A DNA stretch of 64,000 nt from positions 278,743,232 to 278,807,231 of the forward strand of contig OW240913.1 in NCBI GenBank assembly GCA_933207985.1, in the 5' to 3' direction. Made by a program: the position numbers and the translations under genes. Below, in pieces: positions 14,978 to 57,969 of this stretch. Below the pieces are notes generated by a model. The model was not told where the DNA came from, did no database searches, and saw only the letters and a list, made by a program, of their open reading frames with translations. Source of the stretch: Pelobates cultripes. Taxonomy: Eukaryota > Chordata > Amphibia > Anura > Pelobatidae. Position 1 is the stretch's first letter. Each line of letters starts with the position of its first letter.

Positions 14978-15740
14978 CAGGTGATACTCGAAAAATTATC
15001 ATGCAAAAGTTCATTTATTTCAGTAATGCAACGTAAAAGAGGAAACTAATATATGAGATGGATGCATTACATGCAAAGCAAGATAGTTCAAGCCGTGATT
15101 TGTCATAAGTGCGATGCTTGTGGCTTACAGCTCATGAAAACCCCAAATCCACAATCTCAGTAAATTAGAATATTACATGCAATCAATAAAACAAGGAATG
15201 TACATAGAACAATATCGGACCTCTGAAAAGTATAAGCATGCATATGGACTCAGTACTTGGTTTGGGCCTCTTTTGCAGCAATTACTGCCTCAATGCGGCA
15301 TGGCATGGAAGCTATCAGCCTGTGGCACTGCTGAGGTGTTATGGAAGACCAGGATGCTTCAATAGCGGCCTTCAGCTCTTCTGCATTGTTCGGTCTCATG
15401 TCTCTCATCTTTCTCTTGGCAATGCCCCATAGATTCTGTTTGGGGTTCAGGTCAGGCGAGTTTGTTGGCCAATCAAGCACAGTAATCCCACAGTCATGGA
15501 ACAAGGCTTTGGTGCTTTTGGCAGTGTGCCAAGTCCTGCTGGAAAATGAAGTCAGCATCCCCATAAAGCTCGTCTGCGGAAGGAAGCATGAAGTGCTCCA
15601 AAATCTCCTGGTATATGGCTGCATTGACCCTCGACTTTATGAAGCACAGCAGATGACATGGCTCCCCAAATCAACACAGACTGTGGAAACTTCACACTGG
15701 ACTTCAAGCATCTTGCAGTGTGTGCCTCTCCATTAGTTCC
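14978..15740 (-). mobile_element. Tc1-like element, one end plus transposase 3' half
   Basis: After a TA (14976-14977) the terminal repeat CAGGTGATACTCGAAAAATT begins. It is followed by the subterminal 'ctcagtaaattagaatatta' block and the C-terminal half of a minus-strand transposase. The opposite end is missing after about 15740. Confidence 0.8.
15250..15735 (-). pseudogene. Tc1-like transposase, C-terminal fragment
   Basis: Tc1 transposases are nuclear DDE enzymes that cut at TA-flanked inverted repeats. The minus-strand frame at 15624-15250 carries the C-terminal catalytic part: ITVLDWPTNSPDLNP, then KQNLWG, then a conserved RRIDAV-like tail ending TKY. In working DD34E enzymes the residue after NP-I in this motif is the catalytic Glu; here the text reads NPKQNLW, so Glu is replaced by Gln. 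Upstream coding sequence (15735-15625) continues in another frame, so at least one frameshift lies near the second Asp. The N-terminal DNA-binding half is absent. Confidence 0.85.

Positions 15741-15984: not shown

Positions 15985-16013
<29 letters not shown>
15985..16013. repeat. (AT)n microsatellite
   Basis: Uninterrupted AT dinucleotides immediately to the left of the fold-back element. Confidence 0.95.
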
Positions 16014-16107
16014 CAAAATACAGAATCCAGCGCACTCGCTTATTCACTAAACAATGATTTCAAATCTTAGCGATTGTAATAGTTTTATTTAACCCCTTAA
16101 GGACCGA

Positions 16108-16170
16108 GGACGGTTCAGGACCGTCATCGGCATTTTTGCGTTGCCGACCGATGACGGTCCTGAACCGTCC
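16108..16170. repeat. subterminal hairpin of the TTAA element
   Basis: The arm 'ggacggttcaggaccgtcat' and its exact complement are separated by a short loop. Similar GACGG...CCGTC hairpins sit next to the right end of the element at 39113-42836. Confidence 0.9.
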
Positions 16171-16389
16171 TAACGGTCAGAGCTACTTACCTGATCGCCG
16201 TCGTTCCCCCGGCGGTGATCAGCGTGGCTCTGGTTGTGGGGAGACCGTCTGCAGCCCAGACAGTCTCCCCATGGCAGATTAGGACCCCTGGGGCCATGTG
16301 ATCGCTCAACACAGCGATCACATGGTCACAATAGGTGTCCTAGTGTCTGCCTGCAGGGGGACTGCCTGTGCTGACAGGCAGTCTCCCTG

Positions 16390-17020
16390 CTAGTGTAAAA
16401 TCAAAAAAAAAAAAAAAGTTAATGGTAATAAAAAAAATAAAAATAATTATATATGTGTATATATGATATATAGACATATATTATACCTATATACCTATTA
16501 TATACCTATATAATATATGTCTATATAGCATATATATATAATGTCATACTAAGTGTATTTTTATATTAATATGTACTTATATTAATATAAAAATACACTT
16601 ATAATTAAATTACACACGTATATATATAATATATATAATAACTATATATATTGTATATATATATTATTATAAAATATAAATAATAAGTAATTTAAATTAA
16701 ATAAAATTTTTTTTAAATAATAATAAAAAATTAAAAAAAAATTATATAGCTATATGAAATTTTATTCTAACTGTATTTTAAAATTATTATATATATATTT
16801 ATATCAAAATACACTTAGAATGAATTTGTATATATATATATATCTATGTATATAAAAATAAATAAAAATAATAAGAAATATACATACGTCCATATACAAA
16901 ATTACATAAATAATTATATAAATATACACGTAGACTTCAAATATATAAATATGCATATATATTTAAATTCTACGTGCGTATTTATGTAATATTTTTACAT
17001 AATTAAGTAATTTTATTGAT
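16390..17020. repeat. very AT-rich core of the TTAA element
   Basis: Long runs of TATATA and A/T tracts with several inverted stretches (for example around 16540-16600, 'aaaaatacactta' and complement). No coding potential. Confidence 0.8.
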
Positions 17021-17710
17021 TGCAATTTGAGGGACCTGCCTGCCAACCCAGGCCGAAAGTCCAGAGAATTTAATTTGCTAGCACTGTATTTTACCCTGTA
17101 ACGTTCTACGACACCCTAAAACCTGTACATGGGGGGTACTGTTTTACTCGGGAGACTTCGCTGAACACAAATATTAGTGATTCAAAACAGTAAAACATAT
17201 CACAGCGATGATATTGTCAGTGAAAGTGACTTTTTTTGCATTTTTCACACACAAACAGCAGTTTTACTGATGATATAATTGTTGTGATACGTTTTCCAGT
17301 TTTTAAACACTAATATTTGTGTTCAGCAAAGTCTCCTGAGTAAAACAGTACCCCCCATGTACAGGTTTTATAGCATTTTTGAACGTTACAAGGTCAAATA
17401 TATGGGTCAAATATTTTTACATTGAAAATGGCCAGGTTGGTTACGTTGCCTTTGAGAGCGTATGGTAGCCCAGGAATGAGAATTACCCCCATGATGGCAT
17501 ACCATTTGCAAAAGAAGACAACCCAAGGTATTGCAAATGGGGTATGTCCAGTCTTTTTTAGTAACCACTTGGTCACAAACACTGGCCAAAATTAGCGTTC
17601 AATTTCGTTTTTTTACTTTTTTCACACACAAACAAATATGAATGCTTACTTTGGCCAGTGTTTTCGACTAAGTGGCTACTAAAAAAGACTGGACATACCC
17701 CATATTGAAA

Positions 17711-18140
17711 ACTCCGGATCAGTAAACGTAACCCCCCCAAAAAAACTCAATGGCAAATGTAAAAAAAAAATAGAAAAACGGAGCAGTGTGTGATATCGCT
17801 TGGAGCAGTCCCCAATGTAGAGTCCAGGCTTTGCAGGGCAATCAGGTCAGTAAAAGGTGGTGTCCTTTCTCTGCCCCCTCTTGAAAGAGACTCTGCATCT
17901 TTTATATTATTGATTTTATTTTTTTATTTTTTTTTTATTTCCTATTTTATTGATTTTATTTAAGTCTTCACTGAGTGCCTCGACCCCAGGCAGAGCATCG
18001 GAAGCCTGCCCAATGGCTTCCGATGCTCTGCTACACTGCCAGGCTCCTGGGGAGCGATCACCCGGCAGTCAGGAGAAGTATTGCAGGATGCCTCGATATC
18101 GAGGCATCGCTGAAATACCCTTAGAGTCGCTGAAAGGGGT
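17711..18140 (+). repeat. 430-bp segment, copy 1
   Basis: Matches 19603-20032 base for base apart from scattered substitutions. It contains the hairpin GCAGAGCATCGGAAGCC/complement (17990-18031) and the perfect 20-bp palindrome ATGCCTCGATATCGAGGCAT (18088-18107). A more diverged relative is at 22685-22900. Confidence 0.9.
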
Positions 18141-18884
18141 TGTCTACTTTAAAAAAAATATGTACATGTGGGGTGTTATTCAGAGATTTATGACAGATAA
18201 TAGTGTTACAATGTCACTATTGATAAATTTTAAAATGTATGTTTTGAAACCGCAATATCCTACTTGTACCTATAGCCCTATAACATGCAAAAAAAAGCAA
18301 AAAAGCACGTAAACACTAGGTATTTTTAAACTCAGGACAAAATTTGGAATCTATTTAGCAGTTTTTTTCATTCGCTTTTGTAGATGAGTAAAAGATTTTT
18401 CAAGTAAAAGTCAAAAAACATGTATTTTTTTCAATTTTTCATCAGATTTTTGTATTTTTTTTAAATTAAAATACATGAGATTATATAAATAATGGTATGT
18501 AAAGAAAGCCCCTTTTGTCCTGAAAAAAACAATATATAATTTGTATGGGAACAGTAAATGAGAAAGCAGAAAATTACAGCCAAACACAAACACCACAAAA
18601 GTGTAAAAATATGCCTGGTCGCAAATGTACAACATCGCAAAAACAGTCCAGTCCTTAAGGGGTTAAAAACACCTCACCTAGGCAAAAAATGATGGGGGGT
18701 TAGTTACATTATATGATCATACATTGCATAAGCCTGTCAACTACGTCAAAGTACCCCATATTGACGTAGTTGACAGGCTTATGCAATGTATGATCATATA
18801 ATGTAACTAAACCCCCATAATTTTTTGCCTAGGTGAAGTGTTTTTAAATAAAACTATTACAATCGCTAAGATTTGAAATCATTG

Positions 18885-18999
18885 AAAATCACAGTGAGAA
18901 GCTCGGAAGCGCCTCTAGCGGCTGTCAATGAGACAGCCACTAGAGGCTGGATAAACCCTAAAGTAAACATAGCAGTTTCTCTGAATGGTGGTATTTTAA
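18885..18999 (+). repeat. T2-like fragment with CTCTAGCGGCTGTC hairpin
   Basis: 'aaaatcacagtgagaagc' and the hairpin around 18913-18946 reappear in T2-like elements at 31866-31936 and 31420-31456. It abuts the fold-back element. Confidence 0.6.
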
Positions 19000-19602
19000 C
19001 ACTTTCCATGCACTAATTCTACCACCAGTCTTTGTCAAACTATTGGGAAGTCATTTTTTTGTGTTATTTTTTATTCTCACGTTGTATTTTAGGCGTGCAT
19101 TCTCAGTTCCTGTTATGTGGTACTGACAAAGAACATCCCAATATGTGTTCAGCAACATCTCCTGAGTACAGTGATACCACATATGCATAGGTTTGTTGGG
19201 TTGCTTGGGGGGTACAATGCCAAAGCTTTGACATGTGTTTTTCAAATTTGACATATCTTCTTTGTCTATCTTCTTTTTTTGGAGACCTTTTTACATATCC
19301 CAATTTATTTTCTTGCCGTGAACGTGCATATATTTGAAAAGTTGACACCCCAAGGTATTGTATATGGAGTGTTTTGATGCCTTTGATGCAACCGTTTTAG
19401 CCCAAAAAATTGGAGGAAATATGTGGTGGTAATTTTTACATTTTCATTTTTACACACACATTGTGTGTGATTTAGGGTAGCCTGTTGTTGGTTATTGCGA
19501 GAAAACACTCCAGGTTGTTTTCTGCAAGGCCTTCTGAGTACACTCATGCCTCCATACATATGTTGAATAAAGATAGTCTGGCGCAGTAAAAGTAAAAAAA
19601 AA

Positions 19603-20032
19603 ACTCCGGTTCAGTAAACGTAACCCCCCCAAAAAAACTCAATGGCAAATGTAAAAAAAAAATAGAAAAACGGACCAGTGTGTGATATCGCTTGGAGCAG
19701 TCCCCAATGTAGAGTCCAGGCTTTGCAGGGCAATCAGGTCAGTAAAAGGTGGTGTCCTTTCTCTGCCCCCTCTTGAAAGAGACTCTGCATCTTTTATTTT
19801 ATTGATTTTTTTTTTTGATTTTTTTTTTATTTCCTATTTTATTGATTTTATTTAAGTCTTCACTGAGTGCCTCGACCCCAGGCAGAGCATCGGAAGCCTG
19901 CCCAATGGCTTCCGATGCTCTGCTACACTGCCAGGCTCCTGGGGAGCGATCACCCGGCAGTCAGGAGAAGTATTGCAGGATGCCTCGATATCGAGGCATC
20001 GCTGCAATACCCTTAGAGTCGCTGAAAGGGGT
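19603..20032 (+). repeat. 430-bp segment, copy 2
   Basis: Same length and layout as 17711-18140, 1892 bp away, including the 20-bp ATGCCTCGATATCGAGGCAT palindrome. Confidence 0.9.
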
Positions 20033-21659: not shown

Positions 21660-21815
21660 CCTTAAGGACCATTTTTTTGTCAGACATACCTAGTACGTCC
21701 GCAGTCCTTAAGGTGTTAATGTTCTTCATGTAGTTGCCTTCTACAATCAAGCATTGAGGCAGGATGCAGCACAAATAAAATCAGAGACCTCAAAATTAGC
21801 AAATTTCTTTTGAAG

Positions 21816-21888
21816 GGAAACTCAATTCTTTTGGAGAAAGTTTGAGGGGCTTCCACTGAAAAATGTCTGGGAGATTAATGGCTCTTTA
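21816..21888 (+). repeat. direct repeat copy 1 (partner at 22977-23047)
   Basis: 'gggaaactcaattcttttgg' through 'gggagattaatggctctt' is repeated almost exactly at 22977-23047. The origin is unclear. Confidence 0.85.
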
Positions 21889-22679: not shown

Positions 22680-22976
22680 CGACATTAAGTCTTCACTGAG
22701 TGCCTTGATCCCTCGAGGCACTCAGTACACAGGCAGACCTTCAGACGCCTGCCCCATGGCTTCCGATGCTCTACTACACTGCCGGGCGCCACATGGGGCA
22801 ACCTGGAAGTGATCTCTCCCGGGGAGCGATCACTCAGCGGCCCGGCAGTCAGGAAAGGTATTGCAGGATACCTTGACATCCAGCAAGGATGCCTTCCAGC
22901 GCTCAGATTTGCAGCGGACATACTAGGTACGTCCCTTTTTTGTCGGATGTACCTAGTATGTCCGTGGTCCTTAAGG
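22680..22976 (+). mobile_element. TTAA-family fragment, diverged
   Basis: 'aagtcttcactgagtgcctt' and 'ggcttccgatgctct' relate it to the 430-bp segments at 17711 and 19603. The right part 'cctagtatgtccgtggtcct' plus TAAGGG matches the right end at 21690-21715. Confidence 0.6.
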
Positions 22977-23047
22977 GAAACTCAATTATTTTGGAGAAAG
23001 TTTGAGGGGCTTCCACTGAAAAATGTCTGGGAGATTAATGGCTCTTA
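22977..23047 (+). repeat. direct repeat copy 2 (partner at 21816-21888)
   Basis: Near-identical to the first copy and directly abutting a TTAAGG end. This suggests that the TTAA fragment inserted beside, or duplicated together with, this sequence. Confidence 0.85.
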
Positions 23048-31282: not shown

Positions 31283-31593
31283 ACTTACCTTTCTCCAGCG
31301 CCGGACTCCCTTGGCGCTGAGGATCCCTCAGCCTCTCAGCTCCGAATGCGACCGCGCACGCATTCAAACCGCCCATAGGAAAGCATTACTCAATGCTTTC
31401 CTATGGACGTTCAGTGTGCTCCTCTAGCGGCTGTCCGTGAGACAGCCACTAGAGGCTGGATTAACCCTAGTGAAACATAGCAGTTTCTCTGAAACTGCTA
31501 TGTTTTCAGCTGCAGGGTTAAAACTAGAGGGACCTGACACCCAGACAACTTCATTGAGCTGATGTGATCTGGGTGTCTGTAGTGGTCCTTTAA
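31283..31593 (+). mobile_element. T2-like element, right part
   Basis: Ends 'gtagtggtcctttaa' and contains the hairpin 'cctctagcggctgtc...gacagccactagagg' and 'aaacatagcagtttctctga'. The left end is replaced by the GT-rich array. It shares the TTAA at 31590-31593 with the next copy. Confidence 0.7.
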
Positions 31594-32083
31594 AGGACCA
31601 CTATAGTGCCAGGAAAACATACTCGTTTTCCTGGCACTATAGTGCCCTGAGGGTGCCCCCACCCTCAGGGCCCCCTCCCGCCCGGCTCTGGAAAGGGGAA
31701 AAGGGGTAAAACTTACCTTTTTCCAGCGCTGGGCGGAGAGCTCTCCTCCTCCGATCCTCTTCTCCTCCCCGTCGGCTGTATGCGCAGCGGCAAGAGCTGC
31801 GCGCATTCAGCCCGGTCACATAGGAAAGCATTCATAATGCTTTCCTATGGACGCTGGCGTGCTCTCACTGTGAAAATCACAGTGAGAAGCACGCAAGCGC
31901 CTCTAGCGGCTGTCAATGAGACAGCCGCTAGAGGAAATAGGGGAAGGCTTAACCCATTCAGAAACATAGCAGTTTCTCTGAAACTGCTATGTTTATGAAA
32001 AAATGGGTTAACCCTAGCTGGACCTGGCACCAAGACCACTTCATTAAGCTGAAGTGGTCTGGGTGCCTAGAGTGGTCCTTTAA
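31590..32083 (+). mobile_element. T2-like TTAA MITE, full length
   Basis: Runs from TTAAAGGACCACTATAGTGC to AGTGGTCCTTTAA (494 bp), with complementary ends. A subterminal hairpin is built on 'gccaggaaaacatactcg' and its complement. It carries the CTCTAGCGGCTGTC hairpin. Confidence 0.85.
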
Positions 32084-35377: not shown

Positions 35378-36674
35378 CACTGCTCAAAAAAATAAAGGGA
35401 GCACTTAAACAACACAATGTAACTCCAAGTCAATCACACTTCTGTGAAATCAAACTGTCCACTTAGGAAGCAACACTGAGTGACAATCAATTTCACATGC
35501 TGTTGTGCAAATGGGATAGACAACAGGTGGAAATTATAGGTGATTGGCAAGACACCCCCAATAAAGGAGTGGTTCTGCTGGTGGTGACCACAGAACACTT
35601 CTCAGTTCCTATGCTTCCTGGCTGGTGTTTTGGTCACTTTTGAATGCTGGCGGTGCTGTCACTCTAGTGGTAGCATGAGACAGAGTCTACAACCCACACA
35701 AGTGGCTCAGGTAGTGCAGCTCATCCAGGATGGCACATCAATGCGAGCTGTGGCAAGAAGGTTTGCTGTGTCTGTCAGCGTAGTGTCGAGAGCATGCAGG
35801 CGCTACCAGGAGACAGGCCAGTACATCAGGAGATGTGGAGGAGGCCATAGGAGGGCAACAACTCAGCAGCTCTGCCTTTGTGCAAGGAGGAACAGGAAGA
35901 GCACTGCCAGAGCCCTGCAAAATGACCTCCAGCAGGCCACAAATGTGCATGTGTCTTCTCAAATGGTCAGAAACAGACTCCATGAGGGTGGTATGAGGGC
36001 CTGACCTCCACAGGTGGGGGTTGTGCTAACAGCCCAACACGTGCAGGACGTTTGGCATTTGCCAGAGAACACCAAGATTGCTGGTGCGGTTGGCCCTGGG
36101 CTCCTCCTAATGCAAGACAATGCTAGACCTCATGTGGCTGGAGTGTGTCAGCAGTTCCTGCAAGACGAAGGCATTGATGCTATGGACTGGCCCGCCCGTT
36201 CCCCAGACCTGAATCCAATTGAGCACATCAGGGACATCATGTCTTGCTCCATCCACCAATGTCACGTTGCACCACAGACTGTCCAGGAGTTGGCAGATGC
36301 TTTAGTCCAGGTCTGGGAGGAGATCCCTCAGGAGACCATCCGCCACCTCATCAGGAGCATACACAGGCATTGTAGGGAGGTCATACAGGCACGTGGAGGC
36401 CACACACACTACTGAGCCTCATTTTGACTTGTTTTAAGGACATTACATCAAAGTTGGATCAGCCTGTAGTATGTTTTTCCACTTTAATTTTGAGTGTGAA
36501 TCAAAATCCAGACCTCCATGGGTTGAAAAATTTGATTTCCATTTTTAAATTCTTGTGTGATTTTGTTGTCAGCACATTCAACTATGTAAAGAACAAAGTA
36601 TTTCAGAAGAATATTTAATTCATTCAGATCTAGGATGTGTTATTCTTGTGTTCCCTTTATTTTTTTGAGCAGTG
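35378..36674 (+). mobile_element. Tc1-like transposon with intact ends, internally deleted
   Basis: The ends CACTGCTCAAAAAAATAAAG and its complement are preserved and flanked by TA (35376-35377, 36675-36676). Length is 1297 bp. Ends of this kind should still be bindable by a matching transposase. Confidence 0.9.
35675..36415 (+). pseudogene. Tc1-like transposase, deleted
   Basis: The first frame (35675-36004, 109 codons from ATG) holds the N-terminal helix-turn-helix pair: [21 protein letters not shown] and a second basic domain ending [14 protein letters not shown]. It ends in a stop. The second frame (36014-36415) holds the C-terminal catalytic half, with MQDNARPHVAG (second Asp) and RSPDLNPIEH (Glu of DD34E) and a complete C-terminus. 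The central region with the first catalytic Asp is missing, and the frame changes near 36004-36014. This is a deletion derivative that cannot make active enzyme. Confidence 0.9.
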
Positions 36675-39108: not shown

Positions 39109-39845
39109 TTAACCCCTTAAGGACACAGCTTCAGAAGCTTGACTTATGCTTAATGACACAAGCAATTTTTGCATTTTCTTGCTGTTTGCGTTCAACTGCA
39201 ATTTGCATCTCTCTCATTTATTGCACCGACACATATTATATACTGTTTTTTAAAGGACAGAAAGGGCTTTAATTTGATATAACATATATATATATATATA
39301 AATGCTTACTTATTATAAAAAAAATACAGAAAAATGCAAAAAAAATGAAAAATATTGTTTTTTTTTACAGTTTTTGCAATAATAATGTGTGCATAATTAG
39401 TGCAGGTTAAGGAAAGTAATTAAAAATAAATTTATTTATTTGTTCTGATTTACAGAATATATAATGTGTCTGGGATTTTAAGTTTTTTTTGGTAGTTACA
39501 GGTCACAAAGCACAAGGAGTAAAATAAATTTTAATGTGGAGCGATTTTAGAATTTGGTATGTTTGTCTTGTAAGCTTAATAGCCATAAAAGAAAACAAAA
39601 TTGCCACACAAAAGTATATATTTATATAAAGTAGACATCACGGGCTATTTACCTAAGGTTGTTTTGACACTTTCTACGTAGCCATATTACCGCCAACCTC
39701 TGCTAAATATTGGAGTAAAATTGTGTTCTTTTTGGTTTTTGGCACACAAACTTATAACAGAGAAATTCTCGTGTATATTTTGTAAAGTTGGTGTGTGCTA
39801 TTCCTGTACAAAGTTTTATTTTGTGTTCAGTTACATCTGCTGAGT

Positions 39846-40665
39846 AAAATGACACCCCCATTGTATGTCTTTGCACTATTTCGTGAAGTTACAGTGCCAT
39901 ACAGGATACCTGTCCTTTTCAGTATTCACAGTAGAATTTTGAGAGATGAATTTAATGAGCCTTAGCTTCCATTTGGGGTATTATAACAGTTTGACTGTTC
40001 AAAAAAACCCCACAAAGGCCTACCATTTGTAAAAGTAGACACTCCAGGGTATCTCATAAGGTGCATATTGTGCCTTAACATGCCCCCATTTTTTCACCAA
40101 TATATGCCAAAGTATGTGGTAAAAAAAATTTTGTGCATTTTTTACATACGGATTGCATTTTTGCTGGGCGTTTTGTATATTTCATATGTGCCACTAAGTT
40201 CAAACCCCCCAAATTATGCTCAGCTAAGTCTTCTGAGTAAAATGACACCCCATATGAATGTCTTTGGCACTATTTCGTGAAGCTACAGTGCCATATAGGA
40301 GACCTGTCCTTTACAGTATTCACAGTAGAATTTTGAGAGATGGATTTAATGAGCCTTAGCTTCCATTTGGGGTATTATAACAGTTTGACTGTTCAAAAAA
40401 CCCCCACAAAGGCCTACCATTTGTAAAAGTAGACACTCCAGGGTATCTCATAAGGTGCATATTGTGCCTTAACATACCCCCATTTTTTCACCAATATATG
40501 CCAAAGTATGTGGTAAAAAAATTATTTTGTGCATTTTTTACATACGGATTGCATTTTTGCTGGGCGTTTTGTATATTTCATATGTGCCACTAAGTTCAAA
40601 CCTCCCAAATTATGCTCAGCTAAGTCTTTTGAGTAAAAATACACCCCCAATGAATGTCTTTGTCA
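39846..40665 (+). repeat. two tandem ~405-bp copies
   Basis: 'tgcactatttcgtgaagtta' (near 39872) and 'ggcactatttcgtgaagcta' (near 40267) start matching blocks that run through 'catttgtaaaagtagacact' and 'tgctgggcgttttgtatatt'. Identity is very high. Confidence 0.9.
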
Positions 40666-40782
40666 CTATTTTGTGAAGCTACAGTGCCATATAGGAGACC
40701 AAGCCATATCCGTTTTTACCAAACTTTGAATTTTGACGCTGGGCCTATGTGCAATTTCCAAGCATCTTCGCAGGTTTTAAAT

Positions 40783-41590
40783 TCAATCTACCCCACAAAG
40801 GCCTACCATTTCTTAAAGTAGACACCCCAGGGTGTTTCAAAAGGTATAGTTTGAACCTTAGCGTGGGATCATTTTTCCGCTAGCTTGTACCAGATGTAGT
40901 GGTAATAAGCATTTTTTCTGCCTTTTTGACATACAAAGTGAGTTTGCGCAGTATATTTTGCAAACCTTATGTGTGCTACGACTGTATAATACTTCATATG
41001 TTGCTCAGCTATGTCGGCTGAGTACAGCAATACCCCCGTATGTACCTTTGCCAGGTATGTGTGGACATCGGAGGGGCACATTTGGGACACAGCCATTCCA
41101 GTTTTTTTCAAACTTTGAATTTTTATGCTGTGCCTATGTCCCATTTTAGAGTATTTTACCAGGCTATATAATCCAAATTCCCCATAAAGCCATACCATTT
41201 CTTAAAGAAGACATCCCAGGGTATTTCAAAAAGGCATATTTTGAACCTCAGCGTGGGATCATTTTTCCGCTAGCTTGTACCAAGTGTAGTGGTAATAAGC
41301 ATTTTTCTGCCTTTTTGACATACAAAGTGAGTTTGCGCAGCATATTTTGCAAACCTTATGTGTACTATGACTGTATAATACTTCATATGTTGCTCAGCTA
41401 TGTCGGCTGAGTACAGCAATACCCCCGTATGTACCTTTGCCAGGTATATGTGGATGTTGAAGGGGCGCATTTGAGACGCAGCCATTCAGTTTTTTTCTAA
41501 CTTTGAAGTTTTACGCTGTGTCCATGTTCCAATTTGGAATAGTTTAGACGGTTGGTTATTGAAACTTCCCCACAAACACATACTATTTAT
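40783..41590 (+). repeat. two tandem ~390-bp copies, related to the preceding pair
   Basis: 'tagcttgtaccagatgtagt' (40881) and 'tagcttgtaccaagtgtagt' (41272) begin corresponding blocks, including 'gtcggctgagtacagcaata'. A more diverged third start is near 41640. Confidence 0.85.
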
Positions 41591-41844
41591 TAAAGAATAC
41601 ACCCTGGGGTAATTCAAAAGGCATATTTTGAACCTTGGCGTGGGATAATTTTTTCTCTAGTTTGTTCCAGGTGTAGTGGTAATGAGCGTTTTTAAAATGT
41701 ATTTTTTTACTTTTTATAACTTTTTTACTTTTAAAAACTAGTTTTTAAACTTTTGTTTTGCTTATAAATTTTTTTTAAACTTTCCTAAACTTTCTTAAAA
41801 CTTTTTTACAGATTTAACATTTTTCTAAGCTATTTTTTTTACTG

Positions 41845-42470
41845 TTAACCCCTAACTAGCAGTACGCAGCACTAACAGTAAATTCCCCATTTTCCCATAA
41901 CTCCCACCCACCCCAGCTAGCAAAATATATAGTTATAAAATATTTAAATTAATTAATTAAATAAATTGAACCCCTGAGGGTTAAAAAAATAAATAAAAGT
42001 TAATCCTCAGGGGTTAAAAAAAATTAGATCACAGTATAATACTGTGATCTCTATTTGATCGCTGTAGGCAGTGATCGACTGGCAGGGAAGGGGTTAATTT
42101 TTATTTGGACTAGGTAAAGTGTTTTTTTTGTTTTTATTACTTAAATGTTATTAAAACATTTTTTTAAGCTTAATTTTTAACTTTTTAAAGTTTCTTTTAA
42201 AACTTTTTTTTAACGTTAACCCCTAGTTAGCCTAACGTCAAATCCCCAATTCCCCACTAACTTCCACCTACCCCAGCTATCTAAATATATAATTTAAAAA
42301 TAATTTAATTAATTAATTTAATTAATTTAACCCCTGAGGGTTAAAAAAAAAAGAATTAACCCTCAGGGGTTAAAAAAAAAAATCAGATCATAGTAAAATG
42401 TAATCCCTGCCAATTGATCACTGTAGTCAGTGATCAATTGGCAGGGAAGGGGTTAATTTTTTATTAAAAT
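41845..42470 (+). repeat. two tandem ~365-bp copies
   Basis: Each has 'gttaacccctaactagc/gttaacccctagttagc', an AATTAATTAA run, the hairpin 'aacccctgagggttaaaaaa' with complement, and 'ggcagggaaggggttaattt'. Confidence 0.85.
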
Positions 42471-42754
42471 GGGTAAGGGGGGGGACACTTTAAATTAACT
42501 TTATTTTTTTTTACAGCAGGGGGCAGGATCAGCACTGATCCGGCTCCCTGCACTTCACACAGAACCCGGAAGTGCAGGGAGCCGGTAGGTAAGTATTCAG
42601 AGCACATGTGCTCGCTCCGACTTGTGGTCAGAGCGAGCACATGTGCTGGGCAGCTTGACCGGGTGCTCCCGGTATGCCTCCAATGCAGAGGCATACCGGG
42701 AGCACCATTAACCCCGCGATCGCCGCGATAGCGGCGATCCGGGGTTAATTTTAC

Positions 42755-42830
42755 CGCGTGACGGACGAGGTCCGTCACCCGTCGTTAAGGGTCTCCCCTG
42801 TGTGACGGACCTCGTCCGTCACCCGTCCTG
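42755..42830. repeat. terminal hairpins GTGACGGAC...GTCCGTCAC
   Basis: Two neighbouring perfect hairpins, 'gtgacggacgaggtccgtca' and 'gtgacggacctcgtccgtca', adjoin the right end. They are comparable with the subterminal hairpin at 16108-16170. Confidence 0.9.
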
Positions 42831-42840
42831 AAGGGGTTAA

Positions 42841-53949: not shown

Positions 53950-54255
53950 GCCACTATAATTGTTGTGATACGTTTTACTGTTTTGAAACACTAATATTTG
54001 TGTTCAGCGAAGTCTCCCAAGTATAACAGTACCCCTCATGTACAGGTTTTATGGTGTTTTCAAAAGTTACAGAGTCAAATATAAGGCTTGCGTTTCAGTT
54101 TTTTCACATTGAAATTCGCCAGATTGGTTACGTTGCCTTTGAGACTGTATGGTAGCCCAGGAATGAAAATTACCCCCATGATGGCATACCATTTGCAATA
54201 GAAGACAACCCAAGGTATTGCAAATTAGGTATGTCCAGTCTTATTTAGTAGCCAG
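53950..54255 (+). mobile_element. TTAA-family internal fragment
   Basis: Clear similarity to 17270-17575 in the 16093-18662 element ('ttgttgtgatacgttttac', 'acactaatatttgtgttcag', 'ggtagcccaggaatgaaaat'). No ends present. Confidence 0.8.
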
Positions 54256-57615: not shown

Positions 57616-57895
57616 CCCCTTAAGAACGGCATAGAACGCCCGCCGTCCTTAGGGACCCGGCTCTAAACACAGGAGGGCGCATAGAACGCCCAAGCCGTCC
57701 TTTCTACTTACCCGGTTGCCAGCGATCCCACGTCGGCAAACGCGGTATGGGGACTTACCTGGGAGCCCAGGGAGTCCCCCTCCTTTCTCTTCGGCCCCCC
57801 TGGGCCATGTGATCGCGGGGTAATAACAGGTACTCCCCCTGCTGCCTGTAAAAAGTAAAAAAAAGTTTAAAGTTACAGTTGAAAATAAAATATAT

Positions 57896-57969
<74 letters not shown>

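What the first reader, a model, noticed from the sequence alone, without database searches (positions are those of the whole stretch)
16052..18884. A TTAA transposon inserted exactly in one arm of a fold-back element, with the empty site readable in the other arm
The right arm reads '...gtgtttttaaataaaactatt...'. Its complement is the left arm with one TTAA where the left arm has TTAA, 2570 bp, TTAA. The palindrome is its own control: it gives the pre-insertion sequence in cis, the exact element limits (16093-18662) and the target duplication. It also gives a relative age (fold-back older than insert).
Basis: seen in the sequence. Interest (0 to 1): 0.75.

Follow-up and report, generated by a model that had tools for sequence, protein, structure and literature searches.

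The report
piggyBac insert in a palindromic repeat
In what looks like a frog genome, a jumping DNA element of a known kind (piggyBac) landed in one half of a mirror-image repeat, and the other half still shows what the spot looked like before; it is a tidy but ordinary case of one mobile element inside another.

Summary
16093-18662 (2570 bp) sits between two TTAA copies (16089-16092, 18663-18666). With it left out, 16052-16092 plus 18667-18749 is the reverse complement of 18761-18884 at 121 of 124 positions, with one TTAA. A scan of TTAA pairs in the window found only this case; 0 of 20 random windows gave one. The insert is a non-autonomous piggyBac element: its first 88 and last 531 bp (TTAA included) match complete piggyBac copies in the same 3.09-Gb genome at 93-96%, ending on the same base in 5 of 5. 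Those copies have a 557-codon open transposase frame; the end 16-mer occurs 91,297 times in the genome. 'Fold-back element' is not supported: the arm is part of a roughly 430-nt, TA-tailed, high-copy repeat; head-to-head inverted copies occur in 4 of 12 sampled loci, with other breakpoints, so this palindrome looks like a by-product of one insertion. The relative age (palindrome first) is supported: 34 of 34 other arm copies have the TTAA uninterrupted, and the two window arms share a variant pair found in 0 of 34 others. Ordinary nested transposition, unusually well documented.

The parts
16052..16092 (-). outer 41 nt of the left arm (unit U, family orientation on the minus strand), ending in the left TTAA copy
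   Evidence: 100% reverse complement of 18844-18884; continues outward into the natural 3' tail of the repeat
16089..16092 (.). left TTAA target copy
16093..18662 (+). non-autonomous piggyBac element A, 2570 bp, ends CCCCTTAAGGAC
   Evidence: ends coincide with 5 of 5 complete autonomous piggyBac copies
16089..16176 (+). TTAA plus left 84 bp of A with a subterminal palindrome, shared with the autonomous element
   Evidence: 93-94% over 88 nt in 5 of 5 copies
18137..18666 (+). right end of A plus TTAA, shared with the autonomous element
   Evidence: 94.7-95.7% over 531 aligned columns in 5 of 5 copies
17087..17400 (.). internal imperfect palindrome of A (arms 142 nt, 84%)
   Evidence: one half recurs at 53952-54254
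17528..17712 (.). second internal imperfect palindrome of A (arms 83 nt, 83%)
17708..18140 (+). 433-bp module of A, 98.6% identical to 19600-20032 outside A
18663..18666 (.). right TTAA target copy
18667..18749 (-). inner part of the left arm
   Evidence: 80 of 83 reverse complementary to the right arm
18750..18760 (-). 11-nt loop; it is normal family sequence next to the left arm
   Evidence: the same 11 letters occur in 11 of 12 sampled loci, upstream of the arm
18761..18884 (+). right arm: inverted partial copy of unit U (U252-375), with the empty TTAA at 18844-18847
15985..16051 (-). TA-rich 3' tail region of the repeat copy that carries the insert
   Evidence: 66 of its 67 nt align at 97% in L053; similar matches in other sampled loci; block U239-421
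39113..42836 (-). second TTAA-bounded relative of A in the window (3724 bp)
   Evidence: ends CCCCTTAAGGAC and CCCCTTCAGGAC, TTAA at 39109-39112 and 42837-42840, collinear with A
57616..57900 (+). left end of a probable third relative (TTAACCCCTTAAGAAC); similarity to A's left end is weak; no TTAA right end of this type was found downstream in the window

Best explanation
A TA-tailed interspersed repeat inserted here with a head-to-head inverted partial copy of itself, which made a 259-nt near-perfect palindrome (inferred: self-priming or twin priming during reverse transcription). Later a non-autonomous piggyBac element (A, 2570 bp) was cut and pasted by the genome's own piggyBac transposase into one of the two TTAA sites of that palindrome, duplicating TTAA (target, ends, duplication and transposase-coding relatives shown; the enzyme's action on A inferred from shared ends). 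The right arm stayed empty and records the pre-insertion sequence.
For: Exact flank/arm match with one TTAA. A shares both ends, to the base, with 5 of 5 complete piggyBac copies of 7.7-9.3 kb, TTAA on both sides, each with a 557-codon open frame. 116 transposase matches scored of 6166 candidates, 105 of 116 without a stop in the match (my count of the table; only the best candidates are scored); the end 16-mer lies in the fetched 4.1-kb stretch at 27 of 30 transposase loci. Transposase: PF13843 E=4.2e-95 and PF13842 E=4.8e-08; PDB piggyBat 9c0f E=1.6e-70. End 16-mer 45,633 + 45,664 times genome-wide against 0 + 2 for the reversed pattern. Arm copies: TTAA uninterrupted in 34 of 34. Both window arms carry A13+G106, seen together in 0 of 34 others, which points to one template. 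Head-to-head inverted copies with other breakpoints in L047, L048, L049, L053 (4 of 12). The only TTAAs in the 259-nt palindrome are positions 38 and 219, the two mirror sites.
Against: A's interior (about 1.96 of 2.57 kb) matches the five autonomous copies only in short stretches (54-86 nt, 73-78%, opposite strand), so A is not a simple internal deletion of that lineage. No whole-genome census of A-type copies could be made. The 34 arm copies came from a search that favours uninterrupted copies. At position 59 the arms differ, and L052, L056 and L065 share A13 together with the left arm's C59, which would fit two sources for the arms. I saw no target duplication round the palindrome by eye. 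That the repeat is a retroelement is inferred; 11 GIY-YIG stretches showed no unit U.
Confidence: 0.92

Rival explanations
1. The palindrome is a true fold-back DNA transposon (a family whose every copy is palindromic) that was hit by the TTAA element.
For: Arms 97.6% alike, 11-nt loop, strong hairpin.
Against: 8 of 12 sampled arm loci have no head-to-head inverted block of 35 nt or more within flanks of about 300 nt (one of the 8, L055, has a 31-nt inverted piece), and the four that do differ in breakpoint; copies end in TA-runs and vary at the 5' side.
Confidence: 0.04
2. The right arm is a separate later insertion of a second repeat copy in inverted orientation, so the order palindrome-then-insert is not fixed.
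For: The arms differ at 3 sites; at position 59 the left arm shares its C with 5 of 34 other copies, three of which (L052, L056, L065) also share A13.
Against: The arms share A13 and G106 together, found in 0 of 34 other copies; the inverted copy abuts the other at an 11-nt loop, as in other loci where the blocks meet or overlap within about 10 nt (L048, L049, L053).
Confidence: 0.07
3. The insert is a Kolobok-type (T2-MITE) element, which also targets TTAA in frogs.
For: TTAA target; such elements are common in Xenopus (PMC6004289, passages read).
Against: Kolobok/T2 termini are AG/RR (PMC6004289); these are CCCC; the autonomous relative sharing the ends codes a piggyBac transposase.
Confidence: 0.01
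4. Assembly artefact or chance inverted repeat.
For: Palindromes are prone to misassembly in general (recalled).
Against: Both ends match independent copies to the base; TTAA duplication; 0 of 20 random windows.
Confidence: 0.01

Closest known systems
piggyBac superfamily, anuran piggyBac elements (Uribo1/Uribo2/Kobuta of Xenopus; piggyBac-derived protein 4-like of Rhinophrynus, Spea, Bombina)
   Same: TTAA target, DDE_Tnp_1_7 transposase with C-terminal zinc finger; nearest protein 85% (P0001, unnamed), nearest named 63% (Rhinophrynus, Spea), Uribo2 47%
   Different: Ends CCCCTTAAGGAC; the autonomous copy carries a second, interrupted transposase copy (88% DNA identity) and a 394-bp tandem array; A itself codes for nothing recognised
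piggyBac-type MITEs and non-autonomous elements (for example coral CMITE, PMC2872659; outline and abstract seen)
   Same: Non-coding element apparently moved in trans by a piggyBac transposase
   Different: A is 2.57 kb and keeps about 530 bp of the autonomous right end
Penelope-like retroelements (PMC3846280, passages read)
   Same: Partial tandems, head-to-head inverted copies and palindromes at the inverted junction, which that paper explains by self-priming; compare unit U
   Different: No reverse transcriptase or GIY-YIG gene was linked to unit U here; no hammerhead match in 12 loci
L1 5' inversions by twin priming (PMC12016303, passages read)
   Same: Inverted 5' piece of the same element next to the non-inverted piece
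   Different: Overlaps there are short (median 12 bp as reported); here 124 nt, which to me favours self-priming

Membership tests
piggyBac superfamily (element A) | TTAA target duplicated on insertion | tested here: met
   empty site in the other arm and in 34 of 34 other copies
piggyBac superfamily (element A) | ends shared with an element that codes a DDE_Tnp_1_7 transposase | tested here: met
piggyBac superfamily (element A) | terminal inverted repeats starting CCC (recalled as typical) | tested here: met
   CCCCTTAAGGAC at both ends; that CCC is typical is recalled
piggyBac superfamily (element A) | precise excision restoring TTAA | not testable with these tools
   needs an assay or population data
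non-autonomous element | no transposase of its own | tested here: met
   the one listed ORF of 80 aa or more inside A (17950-18312), scanned as the longer frame 17914-18309, gives 0 Pfam families
Kolobok / T2-MITE | RR (AG) terminal letters next to TTAA | tested here: not met
   ends are CC; definition from PMC6004289
Sola3 | Sola3 transposase and ends | not tested
   TTAA target recalled; made unnecessary by the piggyBac link
fold-back (FB) transposon (the palindrome) | every copy palindromic with fixed outer ends | tested here: not met
   4 of 12 sampled loci inverted, different breakpoints
Penelope-like element (unit U) | RT plus GIY-YIG gene joined to the repeat | tested here: inconclusive
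   24 GIY-YIG matches (150 scored of 2774 candidates); 11 of the 24 fetched, no U in them
Penelope-like element (unit U) | head-to-head inverted and partial tandem copies | tested here: met

The most novel reading that the evidence does not exclude
The CCCCTTAAGGAC elements are a piggyBac lineage of this anuran that is very recently or still active and that I did not find described (capped listings; Repbase and Dfam could not be searched): long autonomous copies with a second transposase copy and a variable 394-bp satellite array feed a very large population of short and mid-length derivatives such as A (over 90,000 exact ends), and the satellite array spreads with them.
Probability: 0.35. Interest if true: 0.5.

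Novelty: new member of a known kind. Interest (0 to 1): 0.3.

Why it matters
The locus gives a pre-insertion sequence in cis for a piggyBac insertion, fixes the ends of a very abundant transposon family, and leads to an intact-looking autonomous source in the same genome. It also shows that a palindrome that looks like a fold-back transposon can be the by-product of a repeat's own insertion. None of this overturns known biology.

Tried and rejected
Short exact-flank scan for TTAA pairs: missed the case because an arm mismatch lies 7 nt from TTAA, and counted ordinary repeats; replaced by the mismatch-tolerant scan.

A BLAST alignment of A's right end with the relative at 39.1 kb runs 25 nt past the TTAA into the flank (70%), around a shared 10-mer. 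The flank scores (150 nt) lie within the shuffles, so I take it as chance, but it is the one sign of flank similarity.

Hammerhead ribozyme in the repeat: nothing over the gathering score in the window, and in 12 loci 59 weak sub-threshold matches, mostly miRNA families in simple repeats, no hammerhead. Penelope link: none in 11 stretches fetched of 24 GIY-YIG matches. Pattern scans for the arm and the right end: 0 hits in viral contigs and genome contigs (right end only). Literature for the end sequence: CCCTTAAGGAC in 1 paper; four related strings in 29 papers, 20 listed; I judged the listed ones unrelated by title. Papers looked at by passages and not used for a claim: PMC5199201, PMC11707139, PMC6911290, PMC12822217. 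Unequal mismatch load of outer (0 of 41) and inner arm (3 of 83): Fisher p=0.55, no signal.

Full report
Observation. The window holds a 259-nt near-perfect palindrome, 16052-18884, whose left arm is split by 2570 bp plus one TTAA. Left arm 16052-16092 + 18667-18749 and right arm 18761-18884 agree at 121 of 124 positions without a gap. The insert 16093-18662 starts and ends with CCCCTTAAGGAC in inverted orientation, and TTAA stands on both sides; the right arm has one TTAA at the same place. A scan of 439 TTAA sites for pairs whose outer, but not inner, flanks match a third TTAA site found this pair alone; 0 of 20 Markov windows gave a hit. The same scan over all 256 motifs gave 157 hits; the examples printed (up to two per motif) lie in the repetitive tracts near 8 kb, 51-53 kb and 28-35 kb, apart from this one.

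What the insert is. The ORF list for 12-23 kb has one ORF of 80 aa or more inside A, and it hits no Pfam family. In the window a second TTAA-bounded relative lies at 39113-42836; its alignment with A's right end starts at TTAA, and 150 nt of flank score like shuffles, although one BLAST alignment runs 25 nt beyond the TTAA. Two further results rest on the window's own genome (G000, 3.09 Gb, unnamed; the nearest named transposases are from frogs, so I read it as an anuran). First, TTAACCCCTTAAGGAC occurs 45,633 + 45,664 times, the reversed control 0 + 2 times; two fetched examples are the paired ends of a 71-bp and an 80-bp element. Second, piggyBac transposase (PF13843) gives 116 scored matches of 6166 candidates, 105 of 116 without a stop in the matched stretch by my count of the table (only the best are scored), and at 27 of 30 fetched loci the end 16-mer lies in the fetched 4.1 kb.

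Eight loci were fetched at 10 kb; all 8 of 8 hold a 557-codon open frame. Five of the eight show both ends (7711-9263 bp between the TTAAs). Of the other three, L045 has a right end by a looser pattern only, L039 and L043 none; all three hold N runs past 5.8 kb. In the five, the first 88 and last 531 columns align with A at 93-94% and 94.7-95.7%, ending on the same bases. Their right ends are 97.2-99.4% identical to each other, so they look young. The transposase (556 aa translated) matches PF13843 (E=4.2e-95) and PF13842 and the solved piggyBat transposase; in that alignment the three blocks that hold the catalytic aspartates, by my reading and recall, are kept. The copies also carry a second, interrupted transposase copy (88% at DNA level) and a 394-bp tandem array (5.9 units in L041). 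A's interior matches them only in stretches of 54-86 nt at 73-78% on the opposite strand, many of them in that array. The relative at 39113-42836 has its own arrays of period 394 and 389.

What the palindrome is. The arm is one part (U252-375) of a roughly 430-nt unit U with very many copies: 742 candidates, 40 scored, 43 matches listed, which make 38 loci outside the window. Of these 38, twelve were fetched with flanks of about 300 nt and 20 with short flanks; six were not fetched. Three regions were taken at 5 kb. In the twelve, the arm usually continues into normal family sequence on both sides, copies end in TA-runs and vary at the 5' side. Head-to-head inverted blocks of 35 nt or more occur in L047, L048, L049 and L053 (4 of 12; L055 has a 31-nt inverted piece besides), with different breakpoints, and partial tandems occur in others. 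The window copy is U239-421 on the minus strand, with tail, next to U252-375 on the plus strand. So the palindrome most likely arose at one insertion. Penelope-like elements show such head-to-head copies with palindromes at the junction, explained by self-priming (PMC3846280, passages); L1 shows 5' inversions by twin priming (PMC12016303, passages). A search for a linked Penelope gene was negative in 11 stretches, so the class stays open.

Order of events. All 34 arm copies of at least 100 nt from the 32 fetched loci keep the TTAA uninterrupted: 31 of 34 by a strict pattern, and the other 3 differ only at a neighbouring base. This is a second, trans, empty site, with the caveat that split copies would be under-sampled. 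Both window arms carry A at aligned position 13 and G at 106; singly these occur in 5 and 2 of 34 other copies, together in none. This points to one template for both arms, and since the right arm lacks the element, the insertion would be younger than the palindrome. Against: at position 59 the left arm has C, as in 5 of 34 copies, three of which also have A13, while the right arm has the common A; a separate origin of the arms is not fully excluded. The palindrome has only two TTAAs, mirror images of each other; one was hit, which says nothing about a preference for palindromes.

Verdict. A well-documented nested insertion: a non-autonomous piggyBac in an inverted copy of a TA-tailed repeat.

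Noticed in passing
window 17708-18140 and 19600-20032: A 433-bp module is 98.6% identical between A and a neighbouring piece in the same orientation, while the sequence on either side is unrelated: recent shared origin or conversion.
   Followed up: partly
L039-L046 (genome copies): piggyBac copies carry a second, interrupted transposase copy (88%, seen in L039 and in all seven compared with it) and a 394-bp tandem array of varying length.
   Followed up: partly
window 39836-41693: The relative at 39113-42836 contains tandem arrays of period 394 and 389.
   Followed up: no
window 18885-18985, 31418-31493, 31871-31982: A repeat fragment starts at the outer edge of the right arm and recurs twice near 31 kb.
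   Followed up: partly
window 21813-21886 and 22973-23046: A 74-bp direct repeat at 98.6%, the second copy starting next to a CCTTAAGG end.
   Followed up: no
window 15253-15636 and 35588-36001: Remnants of Tc1/mariner-type transposases (DDE_3; HTH_Tnp_Tc3_2).
   Followed up: no
L004-L006 (one element), L008: An 80-bp and a 71-bp element with the same CCCCTTAAGGAC ends and TTAA flanks.
   Followed up: partly
G000, 24 places: GIY-YIG matches over the family cut-off, several in frames that look Penelope-like by eye (recalled), not linked to unit U in the 11 fetched.
   Followed up: partly
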